From the NCBI RefSeq assembly GCF_030687835.1, contig NZ_CP117449.1, positions 4,526,001 to 4,590,000 on the forward strand: a stretch of DNA of 64,000 nt, written 5' to 3'. Below are positions 16,516-36,845 of the stretch, in pieces. This stretch comes from Pseudomonas hefeiensis. Its GTDB lineage: Bacteria > Pseudomonadota > Gammaproteobacteria > Pseudomonadales > Pseudomonadaceae. The notes under the pieces were generated by a model, which saw nothing but the letters and a program-made list of their open reading frames with translations, did no database searches and was not told the DNA's origin. The position numbers and the translations under genes were made by a program. The first letter of the stretch is position 1. Each line of letters begins with the position of its first letter.

Positions 16516-18510
16516 TCAAGGCTCAAGACGACGTTGCTGGTAGATCCAGTCGACAATCTCCCCGTCAGGGGCGTACCCACTGACAGTGTCACGCAGCAAC
16601 TGACGAACTCTCGCGTAGTCATCATGCTCGATGGCCGCCAGCAGTTCAGCCAACTTAGCCTTAAGCACATCCCACGGCAGATGATCCTCGTTGGCACTCA
16701 TGATCATCGGATGGGGGGTTGCGACGACGTTATCGCCAATCAGCAACTCTTCGTAAAGTTTCTCGCCAGGGCGCAGGCCTGTGAATTCGATTGAGATATC
16801 ACCGTGAGGATTCTTCTCCGAACGAACGCTCAAGCCGGACAAGTGAATCATTTTTTCCGCCAGCTCGACAATTTTCACCGGCTCGCCCATGTCCAAAACA
16901 AACACATCCCCACCCAGCCCCATAGAGCCCGCCTGAATGACAAGCTGAGCGGCCTCTGGGATAGTCATGAAGTAACGTGTGATCTTGGGATGGGTGACGG
17001 TTAGCGGTCCACCTGATTTGATCTGCTTATGGAACAGTGGGATAACCGAACCGGACGATCCCAATACATTGCCGAAACGGACCATCGTAAAACGGGTCTT
17101 ATTGACGCGAGATACATTAGCCTTATCGCCGAACAGCACAGGCGCCAGTTCACGGCTAAGCGCTTGCAGGGTCAGCTCAGCAAGGCGCTTGGTGCTGCCC
17201 ATCACATTGGTTGGACGCACAGCCTTGTCCGTCGAAATCAGTACAAAATTCGATACACCTGCCTGAAGCGCCGCCTGCGCAGTGTTCAGCGTCCCGACCA
17301 CATTATTTAGAACGCCTTCAGCAATATTATGCTCCACCATCGGCACATGCTTATAAGCGGCGGCGTGATAGACCGTGTCGACATTCCATGTCTTCATCAC
17401 GTCCAGCAATTTCTCCTGATCCCGCACCGACCCGAGGATAGGTAATAATCGAACCGACAGCGACTCACGAGCGATTCGAGGCTCAAGTTCGGACAAAATG
17501 CTATAGAGATTGAATTCGCTATGTTCGAATAACAGCAACGTAGTTGGCTTGAGCGCGAGGATCTGCCTGCAAAGTTCGGAGCCGATCGAACCTCCCGCCC
17601 CTGTCACTAAAACCGACTGCCCCGAGACACAATGCTCAAGCAAATCAGCCTGTGCAGGGACCGGATCACGCCCAAGGAGATCGGCGATATCGACTTCCTG
17701 GATGTCGTCGACCTTTACCCGACCACTGGCCAAGTCCATGAATCCGGGGACACTACGTACATGCAGCGGAAAACCTTCGAGCAGCGTCAATATCTCCCGA
17801 CGGCGTCCTCGAGACGAGGACGGAACGGCAAGCAAAATCTCTTGCGCGCCGGTTGTATCGATCATTTTTTGAATGTGTTTAGGTTGATAGACCTGCAGCC
17901 CGGCAATGACTCTATCGGCGATGCTCCTGTCATCGTCGATGAACGCGACCGGCCGCATCACTCGCCCCATGCGCAATGCCGCAACAAGTTGGTTACCTGC
18001 GGCTCCGGCACCATAAATAGCGACCTTGGGCAGGCCATCATCACGACTGGTAAACGGTACATGTTGGGCTGCGGTAAACCAGTCCCCCAGAAAATACTGC
18101 CGCATCACCAGGCGCAACCCGCCAATCATAATCAGGCTCAGCCACCAGTAGTTAAAAATGATAGAGCGAGGCACTACGGTCTTATGATTGCTGTACCAAT
18201 ACACCACAAGAGCCAGCAGCAAGGCTGAAAGGCTGACAGCCTTGCAGATGGTAATCAGCGCATCGTTGCCGAAATAACGCATGACCGCGCGATACATGCC
18301 AAAGCGGATGAAAATCGGGATGGCAATCAGCGGAGCGGAGGCAAAGAGCCAAAGATGCGTTTCGATCGGACTGGCCAAAGCTTCGACGCCCAACCGTACG
18401 ACGAACGCCAGCCATAAGGCCGCCCAAACCAAAACTACATCCGTAGCTACTTGGAGAGCACGCTTGTGGCGTCTTGGCAACCCCAGCAGAGCTACTCTTA
18501 ATTTATCCAT
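16516..18510 (-). CDS. wbpM: UDP-GlcNAc 4,6-dehydratase WbpM (membrane-bound)
   Basis: A 664-residue inner-membrane enzyme that converts UDP-GlcNAc to the 4-keto-6-deoxy intermediate, the first step to FucNAc/QuiNAc-type sugars needed for B-band O-antigen. Four membrane helices (about 20-135) precede a first Rossmann domain (GAGAAG 167-172) and the catalytic one (TGAGGSIG 303-310). The dehydratase residues TDK at 427-429 and M437-x3-K441 are visible; the Met replaces the usual Tyr of the family, as in known WbpM. The ATG at 18510 has GAAGGG upstream, and length matches the 665-residue PAO1 protein. It is the last gene of the cluster. Confidence 0.95.
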   Translation of the reverse strand: MDKLRVALLGLPRRHKRALQVATDVVLVWAALWLAFVVRLGVEALASPIETHLWLFASAPLIAIPIFIRFGMYRAVMRYFGNDALITICKAVSLSALLLALVVYWYSNHKTVVPRSIIFNYWWLSLIMIGGLRLVMRQYFLGDWFTAAQHVPFTSRDDGLPKVAIYGAGAAGNQLVAALRMGRVMRPVAFIDDDRSIADRVIAGLQVYQPKHIQKMIDTTGAQEILLAVPSSSRGRRREILTLLEGFPLHVRSVPGFMDLASGRVKVDDIQEVDIADLLGRDPVPAQADLLEHCVSGQSVLVTGAGGSIGSELCRQILALKPTTLLLFEHSEFNLYSILSELEPRIARESLSVRLLPILGSVRDQEKLLDVMKTWNVDTVYHAAAYKHVPMVEHNIAEGVLNNVVGTLNTAQAALQAGVSNFVLISTDKAVRPTNVMGSTKRLAELTLQALSRELAPVLFGDKANVSRVNKTRFTMVRFGNVLGSSGSVIPLFHKQIKSGGPLTVTHPKITRYFMTIPEAAQLVIQAGSMGLGGDVFVLDMGEPVKIVELAEKMIHLSGLSVRSEKNPHGDISIEFTGLRPGEKLYEELLIGDNVVATPHPMIMSANEDHLPWDVLKAKLAELLAAIEHDDYARVRQLLRDTVSGYAPDGEIVDWIYQQRRLEP

Positions 18511-18614
18511 AAACCCTTCACGCACCTTGGCCTGCTCCAAAAGCTAATCCATCCCGACTGTACGGAGATCTAGTATTTAACAATCGACAATAAAAACTCG
18601 AATTGTAGTCTGAA

Positions 18615-19637
18615 TCACGTCCTTTCGAGTTCACCGGCATGAAACCTGACCGCCAGCAGCACCAGCGGTACGTAAGCCACTATCAGAGCTAACGCCCCGT
18701 CAACATCCCATAACACAACACACGCTGCCAGAGGCAGAAGCCAAAATAGGTTTATAGCCATCACCACTAAGGTCACCGGCAGATGACTTCCGTAGTGGCG
18801 CGAAGCGAATTGATAAGCATGGCTGCGATGAGCCTCATACACCTTGTCACCTCGCAATAGACGCCGTATCAGCGTAACGGTGGCATCGACGATAAAAACG
18901 CCTAGAAGGATCAGCCACACCCAAAGCAGCTTAGGGGCAAACCACGCGGCCTGCAGCGAAAGCACTCCCAAAACGATCCCAAGAAAACCACTTCCTGCGT
19001 CCCCCATGAATATTCGAGCCGGAGGGAAATTCCAATACAAGAACCCCATTACTGACATCGCCAGCGTGAAGGGAACGATAATCAAGCTGTGGAAGCCCGC
19101 CAGCCAATACAACAGGCAAGCCCCAAGACAAGCACAAACAGCCTCCACGCTTGCAATACCGTCAATACCGTCCATGAAATTGTAAAGATTCAGCATCCAA
19201 ATGAGATAAAAAACGGCGAGGATGTGCCCCAAAAATCCTAAATTAATATCCACATTGAATAAAACTAATGGCGGCATACCACCCAAAAAGTACAGCGCCC
19301 ATATCGCGGCAAAAAAATGCCCCAACAACCGCCAACGTGCCGGGATATGACCATGATCATCAAGAAAGCCCAAGAGCGCGATGCCAGTGCCTGAACCAAG
19401 TAATACAAAAGTGAAAGGCCAACTAATCCAGCTATTGGTACCTAAAAACACTACAGTTAATAAGAAGCTTATGACAATCGCTACTCCACCACCACGTGGA
19501 GTAGGTACCGAATGCGAGCTACGCGCGTTGGGGATATCGATCAAGCTTCGCGATAACGCGTAACGACGTAAAATACCGGTAAACAGAAGTGAGACGACAA
19601 AAACGAAAAAATAAAATAATAGCCATGAATTTATCAT
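18615..19637 (-). CDS. wbpL: Undecaprenyl-phosphate HexNAc-1-phosphate transferase WbpL
   Basis: A 340-residue polytopic membrane enzyme of the WecA/MraY (glycosyltransferase 4) superfamily that loads the first sugar phosphate on undecaprenyl phosphate, starting O-antigen synthesis. Eleven or so hydrophobic segments are present. Family motifs are SSHSVPTPRGGGVAI, GFLDDHGHIPARWRLLGH, LYNFMDGIDGIA (catalytic Asp residues) and ARIFMGDAGSGFLG, plus the late HRSHAYQ His-rich loop. In P. aeruginosa WbpL starts both A-band and B-band chains. It lies 104 bp upstream of wbpM and 12 bp downstream of wbpK. Confidence 0.95.
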   Translation of the reverse strand: MINSWLLFYFFVFVVSLLFTGILRRYALSRSLIDIPNARSSHSVPTPRGGGVAIVISFLLTVVFLGTNSWISWPFTFVLLGSGTGIALLGFLDDHGHIPARWRLLGHFFAAIWALYFLGGMPPLVLFNVDINLGFLGHILAVFYLIWMLNLYNFMDGIDGIASVEAVCACLGACLLYWLAGFHSLIIVPFTLAMSVMGFLYWNFPPARIFMGDAGSGFLGIVLGVLSLQAAWFAPKLLWVWLILLGVFIVDATVTLIRRLLRGDKVYEAHRSHAYQFASRHYGSHLPVTLVVMAINLFWLLPLAACVVLWDVDGALALIVAYVPLVLLAVRFHAGELERT

Positions 19638-19649
19638 TGATAACTCACA

Positions 19650-20636
19650 TTAAGCCTTTGAATTTCTGTCGGCGTATAACCGACCGACTTCTTCTAACTC
19701 TGAACAGGTTTTCGCTGTCGGTCGCCATCCAAGGGTACGCTGGGCTTTGGAAGAATCAATCTGCAGAGAACCAAAAAGCTGGGTGTACATTCCCGTTTTC
19801 CCAACGATTGCAGCTCCAACTTCAAGAAGTCTGCTCGGTAGAAAGAAAAAGAAATTCTTTTTTCCCATGCCGCAAGCGAGAGATCTGACGATCTGTGTCG
19901 TAGAGACATCGTCGCCGTTAGATAGCAGGAAAAGTTCTCCGGCAGCCGATGGATGGTGAATCGCAAGCTCTATAAAAGAAACAACGTCTTGAACAGAGAC
20001 GAGACTGCGCAAATTATTTATATTCGACAACGGCAACGGCAAATTGGAAGCAACAACTTTTAGCAATCGTCCAAAGTTACCAGGGGCGTCAACACCGAAA
20101 ATTAACGGTGGCCGAACAATAACCAGCTCCATGCTGGTAGTAGCCGCTAACTCTATGAGGCGCTGTTCCGCTTCAAATTTCGAAACAGCATAATACGCTT
20201 CCGGATTGGGCTGAGAAGATTCATCAAAAGGTCTTTCCTCAGTTTTATTTCCATTGACACCAATGGAGCTGATAAAAATAAACCGCCGCACACCCGACAA
20301 CGCTGCTTGCCTAGCTAAGCGCAATGTCAGTTCGGAATTAACTTGGCGGAAGGCATCCAATGGATCTACTTTTTTTTCACGAAGGACGTGTGCTCGACCA
20401 GCTAAATGTACAACACAGTCAACACCTGAGCAAAGATCCACCAATGAGCGCTCAGTAAGCAAATCACTCTCTATGTAAATGACGCCCAAAGTTTGACTAA
20501 ATTCCTTAGTTCTGTTCCGCACCACCGCACGTACGTCGTAAGACTCAGTGCCCAATTTTCTACATAGCATGCTGCCGACGAAGCCGCCAGCACCAGTAAT
20601 CAGGACCGTTGATCTGCGCGGATCAGGATTTGGCAT
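19650..20636 (-). CDS. wbpK: NAD-dependent nucleotide-sugar epimerase/reductase WbpK
   Basis: A 328-residue short-chain dehydrogenase/reductase of the extended type. LITGAGGFVGSMLCRKL forms the NAD(P)-binding loop near residue 13, HLAGRAH follows, and YYAVSKFEAE carries the catalytic Tyr and Lys, preceded by FISSIGVNG with the Ser. In the O5 pathway WbpK is thought to reduce the WbpM product to the UDP-D-FucNAc precursor; this role is from family knowledge. It overlaps wbpJ by 14 bp and is followed by wbpL after 12 bp. Confidence 0.9.
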   Translation of the reverse strand: MPNPDPRRSTVLITGAGGFVGSMLCRKLGTESYDVRAVVRNRTKEFSQTLGVIYIESDLLTERSLVDLCSGVDCVVHLAGRAHVLREKKVDPLDAFRQVNSELTLRLARQAALSGVRRFIFISSIGVNGNKTEERPFDESSQPNPEAYYAVSKFEAEQRLIELAATTSMELVIVRPPLIFGVDAPGNFGRLLKVVASNLPLPLSNINNLRSLVSVQDVVSFIELAIHHPSAAGELFLLSNGDDVSTTQIVRSLACGMGKKNFFFFLPSRLLEVGAAIVGKTGMYTQLFGSLQIDSSKAQRTLGWRPTAKTCSELEEVGRLYADRNSKA

Positions 20637-21867
20637 GTGGACCCGCCTCTAGTGCCTTCGTGACAGTCAAAGAAAGCTTTTCATAGGCATAAAAAGACAT
20701 AACGGCCTCATGGCCTCGACGCCCCATCAAAACCCTTTCAGCTTCGGAAGTCTCATAGAGTTTCGAAATAGTCCTTGCGATATCCTCTGCGTCTTCAGGG
20801 TCAGCGCTAAAACCACAACTATAATCCTCGACCGGGTCATTTCCGGCTTTACATGCAAAAATAATAGGCAAACCGGAGAGCATATAATCCCATAACTTAT
20901 TCGGGCTTATCCCAAACCTAAATATCGGTTGTCCTTTTAAAGAAATATAGCCAGCCGTCGCAATACTCAGAGCAGACAGGACCACTTCTTTGGGCTGCTG
21001 TTCAAAAAACTCCACCGAATTCAAAGCATTCAACACAACGAAATTCTTCAGCTCTTCTTTTCGTTCTCCCTTCCCAATCAGGAGAATTTTTATTTTAAGT
21101 TTTTTTGCTTCAAGAATTTTAGCGGCACGAACAAGCCCCTCTAAGGCATTAGGCTCACCGTGCGCCCCTGCATAAACAAGAATAAAATAACCTTCTTCCT
21201 TATAGCGCCGTGCATCCCGTAGCAACTGCCCACCTTCCGGAGTCTTCAGGTTAACTTCCTCTATATCGACACCATTAGGCACCCAAAGAAATTTTTGCGG
21301 ATCCAACCCCCTTTCCATCATATGTTTATCGGCACAAGGTAATAAACTGATGACCTTATCTGCTTGTTTATATGCAAATTTTTCAATCCAACCCGTTATC
21401 CGCACTAGTAGACTATCGGGTCGCAAACCACCAAGCTCCACTAAACTGAGCGGCCAAATATCTCTCACTTCAAAGACAAACTTGGCACGAAAAATTTTTG
21501 CTGCCAACCAAGCACTCGGCACACCGAAAGGGTGAGGCGAAGAGTATATAATAACGTCAGGCTTTCCTGTTCTGTAGGCCTGCAGAAAGCAGAACGGAAA
21601 CAACAAACACGAAAAAACCAGCATCGAAAGAGTTCGTTTAAAACCGTTCTTTCGATATCTAGTCGTTGGTACATACACATACTTAGCACCGTCTCTCTCA
21701 AGGGGGGCATGCCGATATTCATCGGGCTCTAAAAGATGGTGATAAGCGGCTGAGATAACTAAAGACTGACAACCAGCTCTATTCCAATATTTGGAGAAAT
21801 AGTATGGCCGCCAGTACCGTCCAACTCCCGGACCACCCGCGTATGGATGTATATACCAAATTTTCAT
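20623..21867 (-). CDS. wbpJ: Glycosyltransferase family 4, WbpJ
   Basis: A 414-residue GT-B glycosyltransferase expected to add a sugar to the lipid-linked O-unit on the cytoplasmic face. The N-terminal domain has PYAGGPGVGRYWRPYYFSKY; the middle contains FEVRDIWPLSLVELGG; the donor-binding half has ILVYAGAHGEPNALEGL and KLWDYMLSGLPIIFAC. Two adjacent ATGs exist; the second (21867) has AAGGA at better spacing. Length equals PAO1 WbpJ (about 413). By comparison with WbuB-like enzymes a HexNAc or ManNAc3-type acid transferase is likely; which one is not decidable by eye. Confidence 0.9.
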   Translation of the reverse strand: MKIWYIHPYAGGPGVGRYWRPYYFSKYWNRAGCQSLVISAAYHHLLEPDEYRHAPLERDGAKYVYVPTTRYRKNGFKRTLSMLVFSCLLFPFCFLQAYRTGKPDVIIYSSPHPFGVPSAWLAAKIFRAKFVFEVRDIWPLSLVELGGLRPDSLLVRITGWIEKFAYKQADKVISLLPCADKHMMERGLDPQKFLWVPNGVDIEEVNLKTPEGGQLLRDARRYKEEGYFILVYAGAHGEPNALEGLVRAAKILEAKKLKIKILLIGKGERKEELKNFVVLNALNSVEFFEQQPKEVVLSALSIATAGYISLKGQPIFRFGISPNKLWDYMLSGLPIIFACKAGNDPVEDYSCGFSADPEDAEDIARTISKLYETSEAERVLMGRRGHEAVMSFYAYEKLSLTVTKALEAGPHAKS

Positions 21868-21898
21868 CATAATCCTTTAAAAACACGTTAAATAATAT

Positions 21899-22963
21899 TT
21901 AGCTCCTCAAAAGATGGTCAGCTATACGGACGGCAGCCTGTCCTCCCCCATACAACTGGTCACTGTCGTTAACAGCTCTGTTAAGGTTATTAGTCACAGC
22001 GTTAACTATCGATCGACTCTGGGCACCCACCAGCACGTTGGCGCCCAAGGTGACTAGCTCAACCCACTCGGTTTGATCACGGACTGTTACGCAGGCTTTG
22101 TTGAAGAAAAACGCTTCTTTTTGCACTCCACCGCTATCGGTTAACACCAAGCCAGCTCTTTGAAGAAGCCAAATCATCTCTAAATATCCGACTGGCTCAA
22201 TGACATTGACATCTAGTTTCAACCCCGCGCTGGCAAGCGCACTACGTGTGCGGGGATGCAGCGGCATAACCACAGGAGCTATTGATTGATGTATTTCATT
22301 CAACGCATTGACGATCGCCCCCAATCGCTGGAGGTCGTCAGTATTTTCTGCTCGATGCAACGTAGCAAGAACAAAACCTTGGGCTTGATCGAGACCTTTT
22401 GGAGCGACCGCCCTTTTGGCGAAAAATAATGCGCTATCCTGCATTACGTCGCCAACGTTTAATATTTCTACAGGCTTTTGGGAGAACCCCTCGCGCTGCA
22501 AATTATCCACCGCTGTCTGGGTTGGACAAAAAAGAATATCACTCACCTGATCAGTAACAATCCGATTTATCTCTTCGGGCATCCGCATATTATAACTACG
22601 CAAACCTGCCTCGATATGCGCTACAGGAACATGTAACTTCGCTGCAACTAAAGCGCCAGCCAAGGTTGAATTTGTATCCCCATAAACCAATACGCGATCA
22701 GGCTTCTCTCTGAGCATAACTTGTTCGATTTCTATCATCATACGACCCGTCATTTCTCCGTGCGAACCGCCATGTATATCTAACTGGTGATCAGGCCTAG
22801 GTATCCCGAGTTGATCAAAAAAAATATCAGACATATTGGAATCAAAGTGCTGACCCGTATGTATGATGGTTTCCGTCAGACCCTTCTTTTGAGCGATGGC
22901 CATAGAGACAACGCTGGCTTTGATGAACTGCGGGCGAGCGCCAATTATAGTGAAAATTTTCAT
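21899..22963 (-). CDS. wbpI: UDP-GlcNAc3NAcA 2-epimerase WbpI
   Basis: A 354-residue non-hydrolysing 2-epimerase. It closely matches PAO1 WbpI as remembered: TIIGARPQFIKASVVS at the start, HTGQHFDSNMSDIFFDQLG, LVYGDTNSTLAGAL, HIEAGLRSYNMRMPEEINR and TDSGGVQKEAFF. WbpI epimerises UDP-2,3-diacetamido-dideoxy-glucuronate to the manno form, the last step before transfer. The ATG overlaps the wbpH stop by ATGA, so translation is coupled. Confidence 0.93.
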   Translation of the reverse strand: MKIFTIIGARPQFIKASVVSMAIAQKKGLTETIIHTGQHFDSNMSDIFFDQLGIPRPDHQLDIHGGSHGEMTGRMMIEIEQVMLREKPDRVLVYGDTNSTLAGALVAAKLHVPVAHIEAGLRSYNMRMPEEINRIVTDQVSDILFCPTQTAVDNLQREGFSQKPVEILNVGDVMQDSALFFAKRAVAPKGLDQAQGFVLATLHRAENTDDLQRLGAIVNALNEIHQSIAPVVMPLHPRTRSALASAGLKLDVNVIEPVGYLEMIWLLQRAGLVLTDSGGVQKEAFFFNKACVTVRDQTEWVELVTLGANVLVGAQSRSIVNAVTNNLNRAVNDSDQLYGGGQAAVRIADHLLRS

Positions 22964-24078
22964 ACCAGCCCCTTCGATTTCTTTAAATCAGAGTAGTAGT
23001 TAAGCAGCTTACGGCCTTCGACATCCCAGTTGTAATGTGCAAACACCGCCTTTTGACCATTTAAGCCCATTTGCTTGGCACGATCAGGGTTGCCCAGTAA
23101 GTAATCTATGCACTCAGCAATAGCTTTAGAATCTAAAGGATCAACGCAAATACCACAGTCGTTTCCTTCTATAATCTCGCGCCACAGAGGAAAATTTGAT
23201 GCAATCACCGGAATGCCCGAGGACATATATTCAAACATTTTGTTTGGCTGTGCATCTACGTGATTTGGCAATGGATGAAAGGTTACTAAGCCTGCGATCG
23301 ACCTTCCCAAAACCTCCCGAACCTCCGCACGCCCTAGCTGACCACATTGATTAACAAATGACCAACCTTCCAACTGCTTGCTCTCAGCCTCCAGACCAGG
23401 TTCCGAAAATCCACCAACCAAATTCAGACGAACATCACTCTTAACATACTTCAAGGCGGTCACGACCTCTCGGATTCCGCGAATGGAGGTGATGCCGCCG
23501 ACATAACAGATTTCATTCTTCTTTTGGTCCCAAGGTACGTCTGCATCCAGTTCGCCAATCATGGGAAAGTTGTTGATATCCAGCGTATTGGGATTAATAG
23601 CAAAAAACTTGTCACGAATAAATGGCGTTGCAGTAAGAATCCCGTCTAATTTGGGACATGCGAAACGTTCAAAAAAAGAAAAAGCAACAGAAACCAAACG
23701 ACGAATGGTCGGTGAAAGATAAGGTTTGCTCAGCAGTTGCTTAGGAACGTCTTCATGTGAGTCAAATATGACGACCTTACCTTGTTTCTTCAATTTCAAT
23801 CCTATTGGCAACAACTCCGGATCATGCAGATGATAAATATCAGCATTTAGCTCCTTTGACCGCCGCAACACATTCCTTGTTGTGCGAAATATACGGTTGA
23901 GTCGGCCACGAAGCAGCCCGGCGTCTATAATTTTGACCCCGTCACTAATTTCATCACCTTTTCCATCTGCTACAACTAAAAATACATCATATCCATTTGC
24001 TGCCAACGTTCTGCATTCTTTTCTAAAAATGCGTATGTCGTATCTAGAGTGAACTGAAGTCACGTGTGCTACTTTCAA
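22960..24078 (-). CDS. wbpH: Glycosyltransferase family 4, WbpH
   Basis: A 372-residue GT-B glycosyltransferase for O-unit assembly. The start motif KVAHVTSVHSRYDIRIFRKE is typical of this group; DIYHLHDPELLPIGL, FDSHEDVPKQ, ICYVGGITSIRGI and PNKMFEYMSSGIPVIASN mark acceptor and donor domains. No ATG exists near the N-terminus: a TTG at 24078 follows GGAGG with a 5-base gap and gives the family start, so TTG initiation is inferred. The sugar it adds is not decidable from sequence alone. Confidence 0.88.
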   Translation of the reverse strand: MKVAHVTSVHSRYDIRIFRKECRTLAANGYDVFLVVADGKGDEISDGVKIIDAGLLRGRLNRIFRTTRNVLRRSKELNADIYHLHDPELLPIGLKLKKQGKVVIFDSHEDVPKQLLSKPYLSPTIRRLVSVAFSFFERFACPKLDGILTATPFIRDKFFAINPNTLDINNFPMIGELDADVPWDQKKNEICYVGGITSIRGIREVVTALKYVKSDVRLNLVGGFSEPGLEAESKQLEGWSFVNQCGQLGRAEVREVLGRSIAGLVTFHPLPNHVDAQPNKMFEYMSSGIPVIASNFPLWREIIEGNDCGICVDPLDSKAIAECIDYLLGNPDRAKQMGLNGQKAVFAHYNWDVEGRKLLNYYSDLKKSKGLV

Positions 24079-24102
24079 CAAAACCTCCAAACCGTCAAAT
24101 TA

Positions 24103-25236
24103 TTAGGAATAAACGCTGACACGTCGCCCAAGAATTCTCTGCAGCAGCATCTGAGATTTTTTAGCGAGTGACTGCAATTTATCCCAATTCTTAAAATCTG
24201 AATAATCATGGATTGGCATATTCATCAACTCATCGAATTGTTGACGGTTGATTCGTACCTTTTTGCAGAAGTAGTCGATATCGACTTCGAGTTCTTGTGG
24301 ATCATAAAGCGGCTCAGCAAGTTTAGACAAAGCCTCTTCACGAGACAGCTGTCCGGAAAGGATCATGCTTGAGTAATGCAGCTTGCGCTTATCATAACCA
24401 AATTTCGTAGGGAGATAATAATTCTGGAACAACTTGGTAAAAATAGACTCGCCATGCTTACGTGCATAGGATCGATACCCTACAGTTTCCTGAAGATATG
24501 CCTCAGCCTTCTTTTTATCGTAATCCATAAAATTCAATGGGCGCACCGTGCGCATACCCTTAACAAATGGGTACCAAAAATAGTAGTCAATAAAACTAAT
24601 AGTCTTATAATCTCTAAGAGGCTTAGATCCGTATCGATGATGAATATCCCTCAGGTTAATAGCGTCCATCGCACTGCCATGCCAATTATCAGGAAAAACA
24701 GATTCCGTCGCTAAATTTCCGCCACTGAGGATATATTTAATATTATTCTTTACAGCAAAATGATACATACTTGAAAAGAAAGCATGATCTTGAGGTACAT
24801 CCTGATTCGCAACCGCAGCCTTCATGTAAGAAAGCTGCAGATCCCGCATTTCTTCCCAATTCATAACATGAGTATGAAGATCATAACCGCAATACTTAAT
24901 AATTTTCTCGATATTACTAACAGCCAGCTCACTATTCCAACCTGCATCTACATGGACAACTAATGGGCGCAACCCTAAATCTTTAATCTTTACCGCCAAG
25001 TAAGAACTATCTACCCCCCCACTCAACCCGATGATGCAATCGTAATCTTTACCTAATCCGTCTTCTTTTATTTTTTTCACAAGGTTCTGCAAGCGAACCT
25101 CGCCTTCATTCCCGGTGAATAACTGATGAGACTGTACATCGTCAAATTTATGACAGTGGCTGCAGACGCCATTTTCATCAAACTTAATATTGGTATCAGT
25201 TTCATCCATTACACAACGAGCACATACTCTATACAC
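24103..25236 (-). CDS. wbpG: N-acetyl sugar amidotransferase WbpG
   Basis: A 377-residue PP-loop ATP pyrophosphatase-type amidotransferase. The motif SGGVDSS is at 72-78, and two CxxC pairs at C5/C8 and C25/C28 suggest a zinc ribbon. In P. aeruginosa O5, WbpG acts with HisH2 and HisF2 to turn the 3-acetamido group of ManNAc3NAcA into 3-acetamidino, using ammonia from glutamine. A GTG at 25236 with AGAGGG upstream gives a start and length like PAO1 WbpG (376). The next gene upstream is hisF2, 85 bp away. Confidence 0.93.
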   Translation of the reverse strand: MYRVCARCVMDETDTNIKFDENGVCSHCHKFDDVQSHQLFTGNEGEVRLQNLVKKIKEDGLGKDYDCIIGLSGGVDSSYLAVKIKDLGLRPLVVHVDAGWNSELAVSNIEKIIKYCGYDLHTHVMNWEEMRDLQLSYMKAAVANQDVPQDHAFFSSMYHFAVKNNIKYILSGGNLATESVFPDNWHGSAMDAINLRDIHHRYGSKPLRDYKTISFIDYYFWYPFVKGMRTVRPLNFMDYDKKKAEAYLQETVGYRSYARKHGESIFTKLFQNYYLPTKFGYDKRKLHYSSMILSGQLSREEALSKLAEPLYDPQELEVDIDYFCKKVRINRQQFDELMNMPIHDYSDFKNWDKLQSLAKKSQMLLQRILGRRVSVYS

Positions 25237-25321
25237 AACTATCCCTCTCAAATTCAGAAATAACAGCGCAGTCTACAAGTTACATTTTATAGACGGCATC
25301 TAATTACAAATTCTTAACCCG

Positions 25322-27920: not shown

Positions 27921-29233
27921 AATGCACTCCTGTCTCGCATCGCACTTCGCTTCGACAATGCCATCAACATTATTAGAAGCAGCATAAAGAAAACGCCTGA
28001 CCCCAGGAGAACTGTCGGCAAAGACTGCTCAATTATTTTCGTCGCAAAAAGCAAAGCGATGGGCATCGCTGTAAAAGTAGACCGTGTTGAATATAAAAAA
28101 TTGAGCAGAAACACAATTGCACTGACAATTAAAGCTTCGACGACTACCGCTAAATATCCGAGTCGAAGATAGGCTACGGCCAGGAAATTAATATTTGCAT
28201 TATTATCTGGATTATTGTACATCCAGCGACCTATCTGAAAGGTGACCGGCTCACTTTTTGAGCCTCCAAAAATCGCCCCAAAAATCGTATCACCGTAATT
28301 ATTTTCCCCCATCACCTGTACAAAAGTCTCTGCTCCACCTAATAAAGTTGATGGCACAGTAAATGCGCGCCTTATGAAGTAATCATTAATATAAGAATAC
28401 CCTAAAGCCTCGTATTCAAGAACACCGACTAATAACAAACCTATTACAGCCAGCAAGAGCCAAGAAACATTAACGTGCCCCGCTCGCCTAAAGTACGCCA
28501 TTAAAAAGTATATCAACACAATAACAAAAAACGGATATTTCTGTCCGAAGGCTCCCCAAAGCACAAAAACGTTAACAACGCCCAACCAAAGGAAAAACTT
28601 ATCTTTCTTATAAACACCCCATGCAAATAAAACAGGAAATAACGCCTGCGTCCCTATCGAGGCGATATACCCTTCTAGGGATCCAGCAGAGAAAACATCT
28701 CGCGCAATAGCGCGTCGAAGATACTGCTCTGAAAAATCGAAAGAAAAGTATGAAGAACTTTTCAATATTATAAACACCAGAACAAAGGAGTTTATCAATG
28801 ACACGCATAGCAAGTACTGTCGTCCACCCCCCCTTTCCTCATTACCAGAACGGAACTTGATCTTATTAAAAAGCGAGATCACGACACTTCCTAGCAAAAT
28901 AGAAAAACAAACTCCGGAAAAGGGACTGGCGCCAGGATAAAACATGTTTGCGCCATTCAACACCAACGCGTGCGGCACAACAATCATGATCAAAAAAACT
29001 ACAACAATATCTCCCGGCTTGCTTATCCTTGGGCCACATAAAAACGAACTAAGCAGCGCGAGTAAAAACAGATAGGCCAGCAACACCCCATCTAATGGCT
29101 TGGAGGCAGCCCCCATATATTCATATAACATGTAAACATAATTATTATTTACCCACACCAACAAGAAAAAATATAAAAAAAAGTAAAGGGCGTTAACGAA
29201 AATCGCCCTGTCAACCTTCAAAGAGATGTACAT
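27917..29233 (-). CDS. wzy: O-antigen polymerase Wzy
   Basis: A 438-residue membrane protein with about 11-13 hydrophobic segments and one large periplasmic loop in the second half (around RRAFTVPSTLLGGAETFVQV to IGRWMYNNPDNNANINF). These are features of Wzy polymerases, which join O-units on the periplasmic side. Sequence conservation in this family is low, so the call rests on topology, on length equal to PAO1 Wzy (438) and on its place between wbpE and wzx. It is AT-rich, as wzy genes often are. Confidence 0.88.
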   Translation of the reverse strand: MYISLKVDRAIFVNALYFFLYFFLLVWVNNNYVYMLYEYMGAASKPLDGVLLAYLFLLALLSSFLCGPRISKPGDIVVVFLIMIVVPHALVLNGANMFYPGASPFSGVCFSILLGSVVISLFNKIKFRSGNEERGGGRQYLLCVSLINSFVLVFIILKSSSYFSFDFSEQYLRRAIARDVFSAGSLEGYIASIGTQALFPVLFAWGVYKKDKFFLWLGVVNVFVLWGAFGQKYPFFVIVLIYFLMAYFRRAGHVNVSWLLLAVIGLLLVGVLEYEALGYSYINDYFIRRAFTVPSTLLGGAETFVQVMGENNYGDTIFGAIFGGSKSEPVTFQIGRWMYNNPDNNANINFLAVAYLRLGYLAVVVEALIVSAIVFLLNFLYSTRSTFTAMPIALLFATKIIEQSLPTVLLGSGVFFMLLLIMLMALSKRSAMRDRSAF

Positions 29234-29236
29234 AAC

Positions 29237-30319
29237 TTAGCCAACTACCGCAGCACAAATATTTGCAACAGTCTCGTCATCCAGATAAGGATGCATTGGC
29301 AAACTCATGACCTGCTCTGCGACGCGGTCTCCCGTAGGTAACTGGGCGCTTGCATCGGCTACAGCAGGCTGTTTGTTCAACGGGATCGGGTAATGAACAG
29401 CCGTAGGAATTCCCTGCTTCTTTAACGTCTCTTGTAACTGATCACGTTCGTCAACGAGAATAGTATATTGAGCGTAGGCACTGGTGTTCCACTCTTCCAC
29501 ATAAGGAACTGTGTTTACACCTAGGGCCCTGAGTGACTCATCATACAATTTTGCAACACGCTGACGTTGCTCAAGCTCCTTTTCAAAAATTTCAAGTTTG
29601 GGCAGGAGAATTGCCGCTTGCAGCGTATCCAGGCGACTATTAACTCCCACGCGCACATGGTGATAGCGGCGGTCCTGCCCGTGTCTGGCAATTTGGCGCA
29701 GTACTTTGGCCAGTTCGTCATCATTGGTAAAAATCGCACCACCGTCCCCATAGCATCCCAGCGGTTTGCTTGGAAAGAAGCTAGTGCACGCTATTGTGGT
29801 GAGGTTACAGGAGCGTTTCCCTTTGTAGGTAGCGCCAAAGCTTTGTGCCGCGTCTTCTATTACGGGGATTGAATATTTAGCGGCTATCGCATTGATCGCA
29901 TCATAGTCCGCACATTGCCCGTATAGAGAAACAGGAATAATAGCTTTCGTACGCGGGGTAATAGCTGCTTCCAGCTTCTGTGGGTCAAGATTATATGTGC
30001 GCGGATCAATATCCACATATACCGGTTTTGCACCGAGTAAGGCAACTGTCTCGGCGGTTGCAATATAGGTGAAACCTGGTGTTATAACCTCGTCACTTGG
30101 CCCAATTCCCAGCGCCATTTGAGCGATTTGCAAGGCGTCTGTGCCATTGGCGCAGGTTATGCAGTGTTTGGCGCCAACAAACTGAGCAAGTTTTTCCTCG
30201 AGTTCCGCTACCTCTGGGCCGAGAATGTACTGGCCGTGGCTCAAGACACGCTGGATGCCGGCATCAATCTTGTCCTTGATACGTGCTTGCTGGCTTTTCA
30301 GGTCAATGAATTCAATCAT
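29237..30319 (-). CDS. wbpE: UDP-3-keto-GlcNAcA 3-aminotransferase WbpE
   Basis: A 360-residue PLP enzyme of the DegT/DnrJ/EryC1 family. The PLP lysine is K185 in TSFFPSKPLGCYGDGG, the same number as in PAO1 WbpE. Further marks are CANGTDALQIAQMALGIG, TPGFTYIATAE and VIEDAAQSFGA. It transfers an amino group from glutamate to the 3-keto sugar made by WbpB. It lies 2 bp after wbpD and 3 bp before wzy, within the operon. Confidence 0.95.
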   Translation of the reverse strand: MIEFIDLKSQQARIKDKIDAGIQRVLSHGQYILGPEVAELEEKLAQFVGAKHCITCANGTDALQIAQMALGIGPSDEVITPGFTYIATAETVALLGAKPVYVDIDPRTYNLDPQKLEAAITPRTKAIIPVSLYGQCADYDAINAIAAKYSIPVIEDAAQSFGATYKGKRSCNLTTIACTSFFPSKPLGCYGDGGAIFTNDDELAKVLRQIARHGQDRRYHHVRVGVNSRLDTLQAAILLPKLEIFEKELEQRQRVAKLYDESLRALGVNTVPYVEEWNTSAYAQYTILVDERDQLQETLKKQGIPTAVHYPIPLNKQPAVADASAQLPTGDRVAEQVMSLPMHPYLDDETVANICAAVVG

Positions 30320-30321
30320 GC

Positions 30322-30897
30322 TCAGGCATCCGTCTTGTTCAAAAATTTTCCGTTCAGCACGTAGCGCGCCCCCGTGTGCGAACAGAAGGCCTCGCCCTGC
30401 TCGTTCAACTGCAATTGCTCGCCAAATTCGCTCATCCAGCCAATCTGCCGCGCGGGCACACCCACCATCAATGCATAGGCCGGTACATCCTTGTTGATGA
30501 CCGCGCCGGCACCGACGAAGGCATATTCACCAATGGTAACGCCGCAGACGATGGTGCAATTGGCGCCAAGGGTCGCGCCCTTTTTTACCAGCGTATCGAG
30601 GTACTGGTCCTTGCGCTCGATCAGCGAACGCGGGTTATAGACATTGGTGAAGACCATGCTGGGGCCACAGAACACGCCCTCTTCCAGCATGACATTGTCG
30701 TAGACCGACACATTGTTCTGGACCTTGCAGCGGTCGCCGATCACGACCTTGTTGCCCACAAACACATTCTGACCGAGCGAAACGCCCACACCGATGCGGG
30801 CGCCCCCGCAAACATGGACAAAGTGCCAGACCCGGGAGTTTTCACCGATCTGCGCGCCCTCATCGACGATCGCGCTTGGGTGCTGATAGTAATTCAT
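30322..30897 (-). CDS. wbpD: UDP-GlcNAc(3NH2)A N-acetyltransferase WbpD
   Basis: A 191-residue left-handed beta-helix (hexapeptide repeat) acetyltransferase. Hexapeptide repeats are visible throughout ([56 protein letters not shown]). The length is the same as PAO1 WbpD (191). It N-acetylates the 3-amino group formed by WbpE to give UDP-GlcNAc3NAcA. Its ATG overlaps the wbpC stop by ATGA. Confidence 0.95.
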
Positions 30898-32741
30898 GGC
30901 TTCAGACTCACATTGGACTGAGGTTGATCGAAAGCACGCTGCAGTTGCTCGGCAGCATAGTGCCCATAACGACTTGCACCTACCTCGTTGAGGTGGTGGC
31001 TGTCACGGTAGATGAGCAAGCCTTGCTGATAAGGCGCAGCGGCAAAGAAGTTGCTATTGGAAAAGTCCAGGAAACGCACGCCCGGCGTGCGGTCGACAAT
31101 GGCCTGAACTTGCTGGTTGACACCCTGCCACTCGCGATTGAATGTCAATGGCGCCGGCAGGCCAAGCTCGGTAAAGCGCCTTACCCGCTGCACGTCTGTT
31201 TCAAACATTGGCACCTGAGCAAGCACCACGATGTGCTTATGGGCTCCCGCAGTATCGCCGAGAAATTCAGAAAACGCCTTGGCGAATGCTTGACTCTGCA
31301 TCTGGTACTGCCACATGCCTGCGACGATCACCCGCTCCACCTTCGGCAACTCACGAGCCACGGCCTCGATCTGCGCACGGCAAGGTCTTTGCGCCCAGGC
31401 TGGCAGGCGTTCAAAGTCGAAGCCAGGGATAGGCACGCAACTGCTGGCAGTGAGCACACGGTAAGCGACGCCCTGCTCTTCGCCCACCTTGTCGAAGAAG
31501 TAGTTCAATTGGGCAGCATGGCTATCGCCAATTACCAGGACGGACACTTCGGCATCCGCCTTGCCTCGCTTGCACGCGCCCACTTGTGTGCCATGGCAGA
31601 TAAGCTCTGGAGCAGCATAACGGGTGAGCTCCACAGGCAACGGAGCGACCAGCGAGGCGTTGACACGTTGCCCCCCCCATACCACCAGCACGACCACAGC
31701 ACCGGCTACAGCCCACTTGGGCACCTGGCGCATGCCGGAAGCTTTTCTGGCGGGTGTTTCGACCAAGCGATAGGAAATCCATGCCAGCATTACAGAGCTG
31801 GCCACGAAAATCGGCAACCATGCAGCCGTCAGCTCGTACTGCCCCGTGTAATAGCGAATGAACGCCAGCACCGGCCAATGCCACAGGTACAACGAATAGG
31901 AAATGCCACCGATCCAGACCATCGGCCGAGTGGCCAGCAACGCGCTGACCGGACCACGCCGGGCGACGATGAGCAGCCCTGCTGCGACACAAGGCAGGAT
32001 GGACCAGAAGCCTGGGAAGTGTTGCTTATCGATAGCCAGCACAGCCCACGCCAGCAGCATTGCGCCCAGCCCACCGAACACGCTTGCAAGTAACAGGGGC
32101 AGCTCGCGCTGGCGCATCAGCAAGGCAACGATGGCACCGACCATGAACTCGGGAATCCGTGCCGACAGGGCAAAGTACATCCCATCTTGCGATTCGCCCA
32201 GTCCACGGTAGCCGCTCCAGGCAAACAGACTGGCGGCTAGCAAGGCAAACGCCATGAGACGCCATTGCTTTGGCAAGCAAATGACCAGCACAGGGAAGAA
32301 CAGATAGAACTGCATCTCGATGGCCAAGGACCAGGTATGCAGAAGCGGCAACTCATAGGCCCGCGGCGCGAAATAACTGCCAAAGCCAGAGAAGTACTGG
32401 TTGCTGGTAAACAGCGCCGAGGACTTCAGGCTGTCGAGAAAAAATGCAAAATCCTCAGGCAGAAACAGAAGCGCGGACAGCGCGCACACCACCACCAGCA
32501 TGACGAAATACGCCGGCAGAATACGCTTGATGCGGCTGGCATAGAATGAAACAAGATCGACCTTGTCGCTTCGCTCGGTCAACAATGCCGTTATGATGAA
32601 GCCTGAGATAACAAAAAAGATGTCGACGCCAACATAGCCGGCTTTCAGCCAGCCACTATTGGCGTGATAAAGCATGACCGCCAGCACCGCGATTGCACGC
32701 AAGCCCTGAATATCGAGACGAATACTGCGCGCGTGGCGCAT
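30894..32741 (-). CDS. wbpC: O-acyltransferase WbpC (acyltransferase 3 plus SGNH domain)
   Basis: A 615-residue membrane protein. The N-terminal acyltransferase-3 domain (about 1-335) has ten or more helices with [19 protein letters not shown] (His26), [20 protein letters not shown] and [16 protein letters not shown]. The C-terminal periplasmic SGNH domain shows [11 protein letters not shown] (about 402-411) and YRDSHHLN near the end. This architecture is that of O-antigen O-acetylases such as OafB. In PAO1 wbpC occupies the same position and is not required for O-antigen as far as I recall. The start is uncertain: ATG 32741 is used; GTG codons at 32783 or 32834 would lengthen it. Confidence 0.88.
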
Positions 32742-32851
32742 CGCACCCGCTTCGTTTGGCTTGTTGAAATTATCGTTCGACACGCTGGCTTGCGATCCTG
32801 CTTGGGAAACTTGAAACGGGTAGCGCAAGGCCACCCGTGTTGTCTCGCCGA

Positions 32852-35133
<2,282 letters not shown>

Positions 35134-35303
35134 CCAACTCTCCATTCAACTTGTCAAAATCATGTAATTCATTAGAATCATGAACCAGGCCTGAATCCCA
35201 CCTGACCCGACCTTCACATCTAGTAAAACCCCATCCCGGTCTGCGGCAGCGCCGGACGCGTTCTCTTCAGCCTTTATCGCTACAGGAGGCAGCCATCTGA
35301 GAG

Positions 35304-35697: not shown

Positions 35698-35737
35698 AAA
35701 AACCTGTCTATACGAAGATAATCTTCATACAGACAGG
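35698..35737 (-). terminator. Terminator of wzz
   Basis: A 17-bp stem with a one-base loop (CCTGTCTGTATGAAGAT against ATCTTCGTATAGACAGG on the minus strand), followed by TTTTTCG. Two positions are G:U pairs on the minus-strand RNA but A:C mismatches on the plus strand, so the structure is suited to minus-strand transcription. It ends the wzz transcript about 65 bp after its stop and separates it from wbpA. Confidence 0.85.
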
Positions 35738-35801
35738 CTAAAAACACTATAACTTACAGCAAACCCCCAGAACTCAATACTGATCACTTTAGCCGTGCCA
35801 C

Positions 35802-36845
35802 TTACCGCTCTCTATTTCGAACAACGGCAAATCTAACCAAGGCTATCAAGCTACCTAACACACCCCCAACAACGACACCCAACAACAAAATCAAAGCTTT
35901 TCTTGGTTTTATCGGACTCTCCGGTACTTCCACACTACCATCCGGCCGATAAACCGAAATACTTTCAGCGTCGATGTTCAATTTACGATAGAAGCTGTAT
36001 CTCATTTGCAACGATCGCAAATCTTTAATAAAGGCATCGTCGGAAGACCTGGACTCCAGGGCTTCAATCTCCGCCGCCAACGCTTTACTGCCTCGTTGGT
36101 AGTCCATTTTATTTCCCGTTTCCACGGTGATATCTACTGCGGCGGTGGAGTTGATAGCAGGTGATGTCAGACCAATGGACTCAGCAATCTTCAACGCTTC
36201 GCGCAGCTGTTGAATCCGATCCTCGCGTACGCGCTGCGCATTCTCGCGCAAGCTGACAATCCTCTGCTCCAAATTTCGAGCCCTGACCGACGCTTCGGCT
36301 GTGACGTTCTTGATCAACTCCGACTCAGCAGCCTCACTGGCACGTTGGACATAGCTCCTTGCCCATTCAGTGGCTTTAACAGGATCTACACCTTGAACAG
36401 TAATCGAAAAGCGATCAGGCGTACCCTTACCAGGCCCCCTTATCGCCAGCTCTCGGGAAAAACGCTCGTATAAACGATCAAGCGCACCCTTTCGCTCATC
36501 CTCACTAAGAGACGGAAGGTAGACCTCATTAAAAAATTTCTGGCGAAGAGACTCACCCTGAAGATTTCGAGCAAACACATCATAAACATACTTAATGGAA
36601 TAAATATTCAGCTCTGTACTTTTCCCACGGCCATAATTCAACTCAGCAATATCATTCTGAGTAGGTGGCATGATAAAAAGCTTGGCTTCATAGACAGGCT
36701 TGCTAAGGAAGGCGTAAAGGCCAGCCCCAACAGTAACCAGAAGAGTAACACCCAGAATCAACCATTTCTGAGCCCAAAGCCCCCGAACAAGCTCGATCAG
36801 ATCAATCTCGTCTGCGTCACGCGCATCAACACGATCATTTTGCAT
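35802..36845 (-). CDS. wzz: O-antigen chain-length determinant Wzz
   Basis: A 347-residue polysaccharide co-polymerase. Two membrane helices flank a long coiled-coil periplasmic domain: helix 1 at about 29-49 (KWLILGVTLLVTVGAGLYAF) and helix 2 at about 318-339, just after the Pro-rich PESPIKPRKALILLLG. The cytoplasmic N-terminus has DEIDLIELVRGLW. Wzz sets the modal O-chain length together with Wzy. Its length equals PAO1 Wzz1 (348). It has its own terminator and lies downstream of lapA and ihfB. Confidence 0.93.
   Translation of the reverse strand: MQNDRVDARDADEIDLIELVRGLWAQKWLILGVTLLVTVGAGLYAFLSKPVYEAKLFIMPPTQNDIAELNYGRGKSTELNIYSIKYVYDVFARNLQGESLRQKFFNEVYLPSLSEDERKGALDRLYERFSRELAIRGPGKGTPDRFSITVQGVDPVKATEWARSYVQRASEAAESELIKNVTAEASVRARNLEQRIVSLRENAQRVREDRIQQLREALKIAESIGLTSPAINSTAAVDITVETGNKMDYQRGSKALAAEIEALESRSSDDAFIKDLRSLQMRYSFYRKLNIDAESISVYRPDGSVEVPESPIKPRKALILLLGVVVGGVLGSLIALVRFAVVRNRER

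What the first reader, a model, noticed from the sequence alone, without database searches (positions are those of the whole stretch)
16516..36845. Complete PAO1 (O5)-type O-antigen cluster in a non-aeruginosa Pseudomonas
Seventeen genes from wzz to wbpM stand in the order known for P. aeruginosa O5, with nearly identical lengths (WbpD 191, WbpB 316, Wzy 438, Wzx 411, Wzz 347 residues) and between the same marker ihfB and the same end gene wbpM. The rest of the window looks like the P. fluorescens group. A shared, whole cluster including wzy and wzx implies either exchange between species or an old shared serotype.
Basis: partly seen in the sequence, partly recalled or inferred. Interest (0 to 1): 0.75.

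Follow-up and report, generated by a model that had tools for sequence, protein, structure and literature searches.

The report
O5-like sugar-coat genes, phage-type modifiers
A soil-type Pseudomonas carries a full set of genes for a surface sugar chain like that of P. aeruginosa serotype O5, already reported in another strain, and next to it sits a pair of genes, related to ones carried by bacterial viruses, that may alter that sugar chain.

Summary
In detail: 17 genes, wzz to wbpM, in O5 order between ihfB and wbpM. WbpB and WbpE are 92% and 81% identical to P. aeruginosa chains; the 8 residues found important in PAO1 Wzx sit at the same numbers. Letters of PAO1 Wzy, Wzx, WbpH, WbpJ and WbpK were not reached, so serotype identity is untested. 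A PAO1-like cluster in a non-aeruginosa Pseudomonas is already published (PMC8319346, passages). It is not a recent whole-cluster transfer: the ends largely follow the species, the middle (wzy-wbpL) is divergent or swapped even between near relatives.

The newer point lies outside the given coordinates. A 12.2-kb IS-rich insertion behind wbpM holds an O-acetyltransferase-type gene (7001-8044) and a C5-epimerase-family gene (8152-9810). Relatives sit in Pseudomonas proviruses, often near tailspikes of the family of the O5-specific lyase LKA1gp49, in the region where phage D3 keeps its serotype-conversion genes. I propose that such enzymes turn D-ManNAc3NAcA into L-GulNAc3NAcA, a known difference between O5 and O18/O20. 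No chemistry was tested; 6 of 8 other O5-like genomes lack the family.

The parts
35802..36845 (-). wzz, O-antigen chain length regulator, 347 aa
   Evidence: NCBIfam WzzB model E 5e-31 but below its cut-off; PF02706 1.4e-19 over cut-off
33820..35145 (-). wbpA, UDP-GlcNAc 6-dehydrogenase, 441 aa
   Evidence: TIGR03026 421 bits over cut-off
32852..33802 (-). wbpB, 3-dehydrogenase, 316 aa from inner ATG
   Evidence: 290 of 316 residues identical to PDB 3oa2 WbpB
30894..32834 (-). wbpC, AT3-SGNH acyltransferase, 646 aa
   Evidence: PF01757 and PF19040
30322..30897 (-). wbpD, N-acetyltransferase, 191 aa
   Evidence: PDB 3mqg acetyltransferase E 9e-91
29237..30319 (-). wbpE, aminotransferase, 360 aa
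   Evidence: 289 of 357 residues identical to PDB 3nu7 WbpE
27917..29233 (-). wzy, O-antigen polymerase, 438 aa
   Evidence: two RX10G motifs, R173-G184 and R288-G299; no Pfam or NCBIfam hit
26685..27920 (-). wzx, flippase, 411 aa
   Evidence: 8 of 8 PAO1 functional residues at the same numbers; PF13440
26080..26688 (-). hisH2, amidotransferase subunit for the acetamidino group
   Evidence: TIGR01855 249 bits over cut-off; start inferred
25322..26080 (-). hisF2, acetamidino modification protein, 252 aa
   Evidence: NF038364 AglZ/HisF2 384 bits over cut-off
24103..25251 (-). wbpG, N-acetyl sugar amidotransferase
   Evidence: TIGR03573 WbuX 361 bits over cut-off
22960..24090 (-). wbpH, glycosyltransferase
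   Evidence: PF00534
21899..22963 (-). wbpI, UDP-sugar 2-epimerase, 354 aa
   Evidence: TIGR00236 over cut-off; PDB 8sxv 2-epimerase E 4e-118
20623..21870 (-). wbpJ, glycosyltransferase; closest held relative P. taiwanensis 60%
   Evidence: PF13579
19650..20636 (-). wbpK, SDR reductase for the FucNAc precursor (specificity inferred)
   Evidence: PF01370; 44-55% to held relatives
18615..19637 (-). wbpL, initiating sugar-phosphate transferase
   Evidence: PF00953
16516..18540 (-). wbpM, UDP-GlcNAc 4,6-dehydratase
   Evidence: PseB-type domain 177 bits, below that model's cut-off; 98% to G267
37286..37582 (-). ihfB, conserved border gene
   Evidence: 98-aa frame beginning MTKSELIER; name recalled
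4266..16514 (.). 12.2-kb insertion between a ComEA-like gene (3799-4134; name recalled) and wbpM, rich in IS elements
   Evidence: DNA match to G267 stops at 4265 and resumes at 16515; inverted ends of three IS
7001..8044 (+). AT3 acyltransferase, O-antigen acetylase family, 347 aa, GC 0.42
   Evidence: PF01757; PHROG 3333 O-acetyltransferase and 6705 O-antigen acetylase; GC
8152..9810 (+). C5-epimerase family protein, 552 aa, signal-peptide-like start (by eye), GC 0.46
   Evidence: PF06662 E 1e-32 over cut-off; the only PF06662 match in the genome
4677..6638 (.). IS21-type element with 52-nt inverted ends
   Evidence: frames, ends; family name recalled
9814..15000 (.). two IS3-type elements and an IS66 element
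   Evidence: IS66 transposase NF033517 479 bits; inverted ends; IS3 name recalled

Best explanation
The 17 genes are a probably working Wzx/Wzy O-antigen operon of the P. aeruginosa serogroup O2 (O5) kind. WbpA, B, E, D and I make UDP-D-ManNAc3NAcA; HisH2, HisF2 and WbpG turn one such residue into the acetamidino form; WbpM and WbpK make the FucNAc-type first sugar; WbpL starts the unit; WbpH and WbpJ extend it; Wzx flips it; Wzy polymerises it; Wzz sets the length. In this lineage the operon is a mosaic: the border genes are largely inherited with the species, the middle (wzy to wbpL) is exchanged or diverges fast. Behind wbpM an IS-rich insertion holds a pair of genes of a kind found in phages. 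The AT3 enzyme would O-acetylate the O-antigen. The apparently secreted C5-epimerase-family enzyme would invert C5 of a ManNAc3NAcA-type residue in the periplasm, giving L-GulNAc3NAcA, as AlgG does for alginate (recalled). In phages such genes would change the surface of the lysogen so that phages with an O5-type tailspike bind it less. Shown: genes, order, motifs, family hits, neighbourhoods. Inferred: every enzyme activity, the sugar structure, the epimerase substrate.
For: Cluster: gene content and order; WbpB 290/316 and WbpE 289/357 identical to P. aeruginosa chains; Wzx 8 of 8 functional residues (with PMC3412221); two RX10G motifs in Wzy (motif in PMC4815439). Mosaic: against G267 (RpsA 100%, GyrA 98%) wbpA-E 95-99% and wbpM 98%, but wzz 82%, wzy 68%, wzx 73%, wbpJ 41%, wbpK 48%. 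P. mediterranea and P. sp. 10-1B share wbpG 93%, wbpI 93% and wbpJ 89% against wbpM 82% and wzz 46%. Modifiers: AT3 (79%) and C5-epimerase (71%) side by side in a P. taiwanensis provirus (phage genes around it), and AT3 (72-79%) followed by another PF06662-type protein in 6 further viral contigs (L105-L110; Pfam tested in L105 and L109). PF06662-type genes lie within about 8 kb of a PMG1/D3-type tailspike in L111, L112, L113, L107, L122, L123 and L125, directly next to it in L111, L107 and L125; in P. aeruginosa phage CF57a the gene follows such a tailspike, where phage D3 has iap, O-acetylase and wzy-beta. 21 of 23 tailspike loci (57% or more to the PMG1/D3 tailspike) carry at least one of wzy-beta, acetylase or PF06662 (12 weaker of the 35 loci left out; some loci are near-identical copies). 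PF06662 genes lie inside wbp-type O-antigen clusters of G060 and P. sp. 10-1B. O5 and O18/O20 have an identical Wzy and differ by D-mannose/L-gulose configuration (PMC12004945, passages); PMC4815439 (passages) says of O5 and O16 that clusters are identical and differing genes must lie elsewhere.
Against: PAO1 Wzy, WbpH, WbpJ, WbpK and WbpL were not compared, and one PAO1 Wzy residue (R385) is out of register. In the window the pair has no phage genes around it, and the genome has no match to the LKA1-type tailspike family (a search that rang in no control). 6 of 8 other O5-like genomes (G267, G273, G218, G072, G650, G702) have no PF06662 match; 2 (G342, G674) have one. PF06662-type hits were 5 of 378 genus genomes and 5 of 398 family genomes, own in both; of the 8 others, 3 (G342, G060, G674) have a wbp-type cluster and 5 (G024, G054, G673, G476, G519) show none of these genes at E 1e-20 in the 3.4-12 kb held (three of them have a weak wbpH-like match of 23-25%). 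6 of 18 viral contigs with the gene (L078-L083) show neither such a tailspike nor an acetylase in the DNA held. In L112 and L113 the gene is about 7.7 kb from the tailspike and only its N-terminal half. Similarity to a solved C5-epimerase is weak (E 3e-4). No structure could be predicted. The Pfam family is named for glucuronic acid enzymes.
Confidence: 0.6

Rival explanations
1. The whole cluster moved recently between P. aeruginosa and this lineage.
For: Same gene order and location as PAO1; wzy to wbpL have GC 0.40-0.50 against 0.60 in the right part of the window.
Against: WbpE is 81% and WbpB 92% identical to the P. aeruginosa chains, no closer than clusters of other species (WbpE of P. 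taiwanensis 87%, WbpB of P. shirazensis 94%); wbpC and wbpM follow the species group. No wzy relative in plasmids or viral contigs.
Confidence: 0.03
2. The cluster is an old serotype kept by vertical descent since before P. aeruginosa and the P. fluorescens group split.
For: Ends largely follow the species; the same order occurs in distant species.
Against: Patchy: O5-like Wzy (55% or more) in 6 of 398 genus genomes and 3 of 398 family genomes, own included in both; near relatives have wzy 56-68% and other WbpJ types; the middle is shared across groups (P. mediterranea with 10-1B).
Confidence: 0.2
3. Same frame, different polymer: WbpJ and WbpK are of other specificity, so the O-antigen is not O5.
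For: WbpJ 33-60% and WbpK 44-55% to all held relatives; by identity the window pairs with P. taiwanensis, and G267 and P. agronomica with P. shirazensis.
Against: Wzx functional residues and pathway genes for all three sugars are kept.
Confidence: 0.3
4. The AT3 and C5-epimerase genes are passengers among IS elements, or act on another polysaccharide such as alginate or an exopolysaccharide.
For: They sit between IS elements; the Pfam family is named for glucuronic acid enzymes; five genomes have PF06662-type hits without a wbp cluster in the DNA held; 6 of 8 other O5-like genomes have none.
Against: Both frames are intact; relatives recur with O-antigen lyase-type tailspikes, wzy-beta and acetylases, and inside two wbp-type clusters.
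Confidence: 0.35

Closest known systems
P. aeruginosa PAO1 serotype O5 OSA (B-band) cluster
   Same: 17 genes, order, border genes, Wzx functional residues, WbpB 92% and WbpE 81%
   Different: species; central genes of unknown identity to PAO1; IS-rich insertion with two modifier-type genes behind wbpM
OSA cluster of strain Pse05 (locus tags AO356; Carim et al. 2021, PMC8319346, passages)
   Same: a non-aeruginosa Pseudomonas with a PAO1-homologous cluster and PAO1's tailocin sensitivity pattern
   Different: its sequence was not read here; no modifier pair is mentioned in the passages seen
Phage D3 serotype-conversion unit (iap, O-acetylase, wzy-beta)
   Same: O-antigen modifying genes behind the tailspike gene; acetylase with an AT3 domain
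   Different: no PF06662 gene in the D3 stretch read; the window pair is chromosomal without phage genes
D-glucuronyl C5-epimerase family (PF06662; PDB 4pw2)
   Same: profile match over cut-off
   Different: match to the solved enzyme is weak; proposed substrate is a diacetamido-mannuronic acid, not glucuronic acid
AlgG, periplasmic alginate C5-epimerase (recalled)
   Same: proposed logic: D-manno to L-gulo on a polymer in the periplasm
   Different: other protein family (recalled); not compared here

Membership tests
P. aeruginosa serogroup O2 (O5) OSA cluster | 17 genes wzz to wbpM in O5 order between ihfB and wbpM | tested here: met
   the O5 order itself is recalled, its 17 genes and borders are in PMC6804347 and PMC8319346
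P. aeruginosa serogroup O2 (O5) OSA cluster | Orthologous sugar-pathway enzymes | tested here: met
   WbpB 290/316, WbpE 289/357; NCBIfam HisF2, WbpG, WbpI over cut-off
P. aeruginosa serogroup O2 (O5) OSA cluster | Wzx of PAO1 type: R59 Y60 E61 F139 R146 D269 K272 D359 | tested here: met
   8 of 8 at the same numbers (PMC3412221)
P. aeruginosa serogroup O2 (O5) OSA cluster | Wzy with two RX10G motifs | tested here: met
P. aeruginosa serogroup O2 (O5) OSA cluster | Wzy N380 and R385 (length control in PAO1) | tested here: inconclusive
   N at 378, R at 384 instead of the expected 383
P. aeruginosa serogroup O2 (O5) OSA cluster | Wzy, WbpH, WbpJ, WbpK closely related to PAO1 | not testable with these tools
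   no PAO1 sequence of these in any collection reached
P. aeruginosa serogroup O2 (O5) OSA cluster | FucNAc, ManNAc3NAcA, ManNAc3NAmA repeat unit; O5 antiserum | not testable with these tools
   needs NMR or serology
PF06662 C5-epimerase family | profile match over the curated cut-off | tested here: met
   113.5 bits, cut-off 23.3
D3-type phage serotype-conversion unit | lies in a phage behind the tailspike gene | tested here: not met
   window pair is among IS elements; met only by relatives
D3-type phage serotype-conversion unit | O-antigen acetylase | tested here: met
   AT3 gene: PHROG 6705 E 1e-33; activity untested

The most novel reading that the evidence does not exclude
The PF06662 genes of Pseudomonas phages are O-antigen C5-epimerases that convert D-ManNAc3NAcA to L-GulNAc3NAcA. 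They would be the missing genes that separate P. aeruginosa serotypes O18/O20 (and O2; which of O2 and O16 is the L-gulo form is recalled) from O5 and O16; a provirus with both wzy-beta and the epimerase (L122, L123) would turn O5 into an O2-like antigen. The window strain has captured such a gene beside its own O5-type cluster.
Probability: 0.35. Interest if true: 0.72.

Novelty: new variant of a known kind. Interest (0 to 1): 0.52.

Why it matters
The cluster alone is a further case of a published pattern, useful for tailocin, phage and biocontrol work because O-antigen type bears on sensitivity (PMC8319346). The modifier pair matters more. In P. aeruginosa serogroup O2, O5 and O18/O20 share Wzy yet differ in the configuration of one sugar (PMC12004945, passages); no paper that my searches listed points to the gene (listings only, an open-licence library). 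If phage-borne C5-epimerases do this, a third kind of serotype conversion would stand beside acetylation and polymerase replacement, it would be clear why typing from cluster genes alone falls short, and the question becomes testable by genome comparison and one deletion.

Tried and rejected
Searching for PAO1 Wzy or Wzx letters: genome contigs gave 7 non-aeruginosa loci, viral contigs and plasmids none; the PDB gave close chains only for WbpB and WbpE, and none that could be PAO1's for Wzz, WbpD, WbpI and WbpA. GyrA gave no PDB chain close enough to be that of P. aeruginosa, so no P. aeruginosa backbone gene was compared. Recent whole-cluster transfer was rejected. A first identity script read the wrong record and gave nothing (repeated). 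Some cells of the matrix are artefacts of cutting at stops (P. mediterranea wbpB and wbpC, P. agronomica and P. inefficax wbpG, hisH2); one search is the corrected one, for window pairs and one further pair only. The epimerase was absent from plasmids and its close form from phage records (one weak Bradyrhizobium hit); a more distant form, from L122, has 15 P. aeruginosa phage records, the 339-aa form none of Pseudomonas, and the AT3 gene only matches under 60% identity in 64 phage records. Paper searches: one search held 357 papers, 20 shown; one search held 31, 20 shown, none of the 20 with the word C5-epimerase; one search held 18, all shown. I saw the listings, not the papers, so this is a thin check of novelty.
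Full report
Observation. The window is 4526001-4590000 of a one-contig genome of 6,451,026 bases. Seventeen genes, wzz to wbpM, fill 16516-36845 on the minus strand in the O5 order. WbpA, HisH2, HisF2, WbpG and WbpI pass NCBIfam cut-offs. Wzy has no family hit. ihfB is at 37286-37582, rpsA at 38285-39979.

Is it O5? Only two P. aeruginosa proteins of the cluster could be reached as letters. WbpB is identical at 290 of 316 positions to PDB 3oa2 and WbpE at 289 of 357 to PDB 3nu7 (that these chains are of PAO1 is recalled). For Wzx, PMC3412221 (outline, Results, first part of the Discussion read) names eight residues important in PAO1; all eight stand at the same numbers in the 411-residue window protein. 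Window Wzy has two RX10G motifs, as described for PAO1 Wzy (PMC4815439, passages). Of two PAO1 Wzy length-control residues, the asparagine is kept (offset 2) and the arginine is one position out. So membership by order, pathway and Wzx is met; identity of the serotype is not shown.

Species and spread. RpsA is 98-100% and GyrA 97-98% identical to G267, P. agronomica, P. mediterranea and P. citri; NCBI puts P. mediterranea in the P. fluorescens group. A Wzy match occurs in 11 of 398 genus genomes, 6 of them (own included) at 55% or more, and in 6 of 398 family genomes, 3 of them (own included) at 56% or more. Seven named records were fetched, none of P. aeruginosa; the held P. aeruginosa representative seems not to be of O5 type (inference). 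Names of the G-handles G072, G218, G273, G342, G650 and G674 follow from equal contig lengths or coordinates.

Mosaic. Against G267: wzz 82, wbpA 97, wbpB 99, wbpC 95, wbpD 97, wbpE 96, wzy 68, wzx 73, hisH2 88, hisF2 89, wbpG 86, wbpH 72, wbpI 75, wbpJ 41, wbpK 48, wbpL 80, wbpM 98 (per cent). Against P. mediterranea: wzz 82, wbpA-D 92-98, wbpE 82, wzy 56, wbpM 95. Outside the group (10-1B, P. inefficax, P. shirazensis, P. taiwanensis): wzz 44-47, wbpA 85-86, wbpC 67-79, wbpE 82-84, wzy 55-58, wbpM 79-82, while wbpB (94-96) and wbpD (88-96) are high everywhere. So wzz, wbpA, wbpC and wbpM track the group, wbpE only in the nearest two, and the middle does not. P. mediterranea and P. sp. 10-1B (GyrA 98% and 92% to the window) share wbpG 93, wbpI 93 and wbpJ 89 but wbpM 82 and wzz 46: the middle is exchanged between species. 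By identity the window pairs with P. taiwanensis for WbpJ (60) and WbpK (55), and G267 and P. agronomica with P. shirazensis for WbpJ (56-57). In P. mediterranea, P. citri, 10-1B and P. inefficax the wbpK-wbpL part is replaced; in P. mediterranea by a Bac_transf, a PglD_N and a DegT aminotransferase protein, which suggests a bacillosamine-type first sugar (inference). P. mediterranea O-antigen does contain ManNAc3NAcA (PMC10622841, abstract and passages), which fits its wbpA, B, D, E and I genes.

Prior work. Carim et al. 2021 (PMC8319346, passages) report that strain Pse05 has an OSA cluster homologous to PAO1, that the two are 79.95% ANI apart and have the same tailocin sensitivity, and list wbpA, B, D, E, G, I, L and M among the genes whose disruption favours tailocin resistance in their strains. 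PMC6804347 (passages) reports several syntenic PAO1 OSA orthologues in P. brassicacearum NFM421. So the given finding is known in kind.

The insertion behind wbpM. DNA similarity to G267 runs to 4265 and resumes at 16515. Between lie an IS21-type element, an AT3 acyltransferase gene (7001-8044), a C5-epimerase-family gene (8152-9810), two IS3-type elements and an IS66 element, then GFA-type and GNAT genes. In P. mediterranea the two flanks are contiguous. G267 has an AT3 gene (68% over 336 residues) at this spot without the epimerase. P. taiwanensis has a 3' part of an epimerase gene with an inner stop just beyond the end of wbpM, close to a contig end, and an intact copy with AT3 in a provirus.

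Phage relatives. Epimerase relatives at 71-87% are in 9 viral contigs, two of them only the N-terminal half (L085, L086); L084 is the P. taiwanensis provirus. AT3 relatives at 72-79% are in 7 viral contigs: the P. taiwanensis contig again (L104) and L105-L110, where a PF06662-type protein follows (cut short in L107; Pfam tested in L105 and L109). Tailspike relatives gave 35 loci; 23 (L111-L133) match the PMG1/D3 tailspike at 57% or more. Of the 23, 19 have wzy-beta (two only in part), 7 an acetylase, 6 a PF06662-type gene, and 21 at least one of these; L124 and L131 have none in the DNA held. L133 is D3 itself, and some loci are near-identical copies, so these are not independent events. The 12 weaker loci (L134-L145) were left out; two have a wzy-beta relative at 36%, none an epimerase. 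In all, 18 viral contigs hold a PF06662-type gene (8 tested in Pfam, 8 positive); 12 of 18 have an acetyltransferase or such a tailspike within about 8 kb, 6 (L078-L083) have neither in the DNA held. L122 and L123 carry tailspike, wzy-beta (91% to PMG1/D3) and the epimerase-type gene together. Flanks of L079, L109 and L122 match P. aeruginosa phages. Fifteen P. aeruginosa phage records carry a relative of the L122 gene; the ten listed are 44.8% identical and annotated as hypothetical. In CF57a, the one read, it follows a PF22442 tailspike and is a PF06662 protein, where D3 has iap, O-acetylase and wzy-beta. PF22442 is named for Gp49; LKA1gp49 is an O5-specific O-antigen lyase (PMC5701251, passages), and the P. 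taiwanensis provirus tailspike matches the structures 4ru5 (phi297) and 4ru4 (LKA1).

Cluster relatives and counter-evidence. PF06662 genes also lie inside two O-antigen clusters with wbp genes: in G060 between wbpH and wbpI and in P. sp. 10-1B between hisF2 and wbpG. Against this, five other genomes with PF06662-type hits show no wbp gene at E 1e-20 in the stretches held, and 6 of 8 other O5-like genomes have no PF06662 match. Presence is thus not general among O5-like clusters, as expected for a variable modifier but also for a passenger.

Mechanism proposed. P. aeruginosa O5 and O18/O20 have the same Wzy and differ in D-mannose against L-gulose configuration, with a similar case for O2 and O16 (PMC12004945, passages); for O5 and O16, PMC4815439 (passages) says the clusters are identical and the differing genes lie elsewhere. 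D-manno to L-gulo is a C5 inversion. A secreted C5-epimerase carried by phages that bind O5-type chains would do this and hinder later phages. The step from PF06662 to this substrate is inference.

Verdict. The given finding is a new member of a known kind. The captured phage-type modifier pair makes the locus a new variant, with a testable claim on an open point of P. aeruginosa serogroup O2.

Noticed in passing
L025:18621-21090 (P. mediterranea); similar gap in P. citri, P. sp. 10-1B, P. inefficax clusters: wbpK-wbpL replaced by Bac_transf, PglD_N and DegT aminotransferase genes within an otherwise wbp-type cluster (Pfam tested in P. mediterranea only): a swap of the first-sugar module.
   Followed up: partly
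L122 and L123, 8001-13499: Proviruses with PMG1/D3-type tailspike, wzy-beta and a PF06662 gene together.
   Followed up: partly
MK511002 (L149), 30693-32375 of the record: P. aeruginosa phage CF57a carries a PF06662 gene annotated as hypothetical; 14 further P. aeruginosa phage records match too, nine of them listed.
   Followed up: partly
G267:C1:742413-743420: AT3 acyltransferase gene at the end of wbpM, without IS or epimerase: the same spot as in the window.
   Followed up: partly
window 35146-35801: 656-bp gap between wzz and wbpA with a 106-aa frame without family hit.
   Followed up: no
G000:C1:4254005-4257806: A second Wzz-family match (532-aa frame) near a Wzy_C-family match (477-aa frame): probably another polysaccharide locus.
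   Followed up: no
L078-L083: Six proviruses (L079 flanks P. aeruginosa-type) carry close epimerase relatives, in the one annotated (L096, contig of L083) between endolysin and tail genes, without acetylase or D3-type tailspike in the DNA held.
   Followed up: partly
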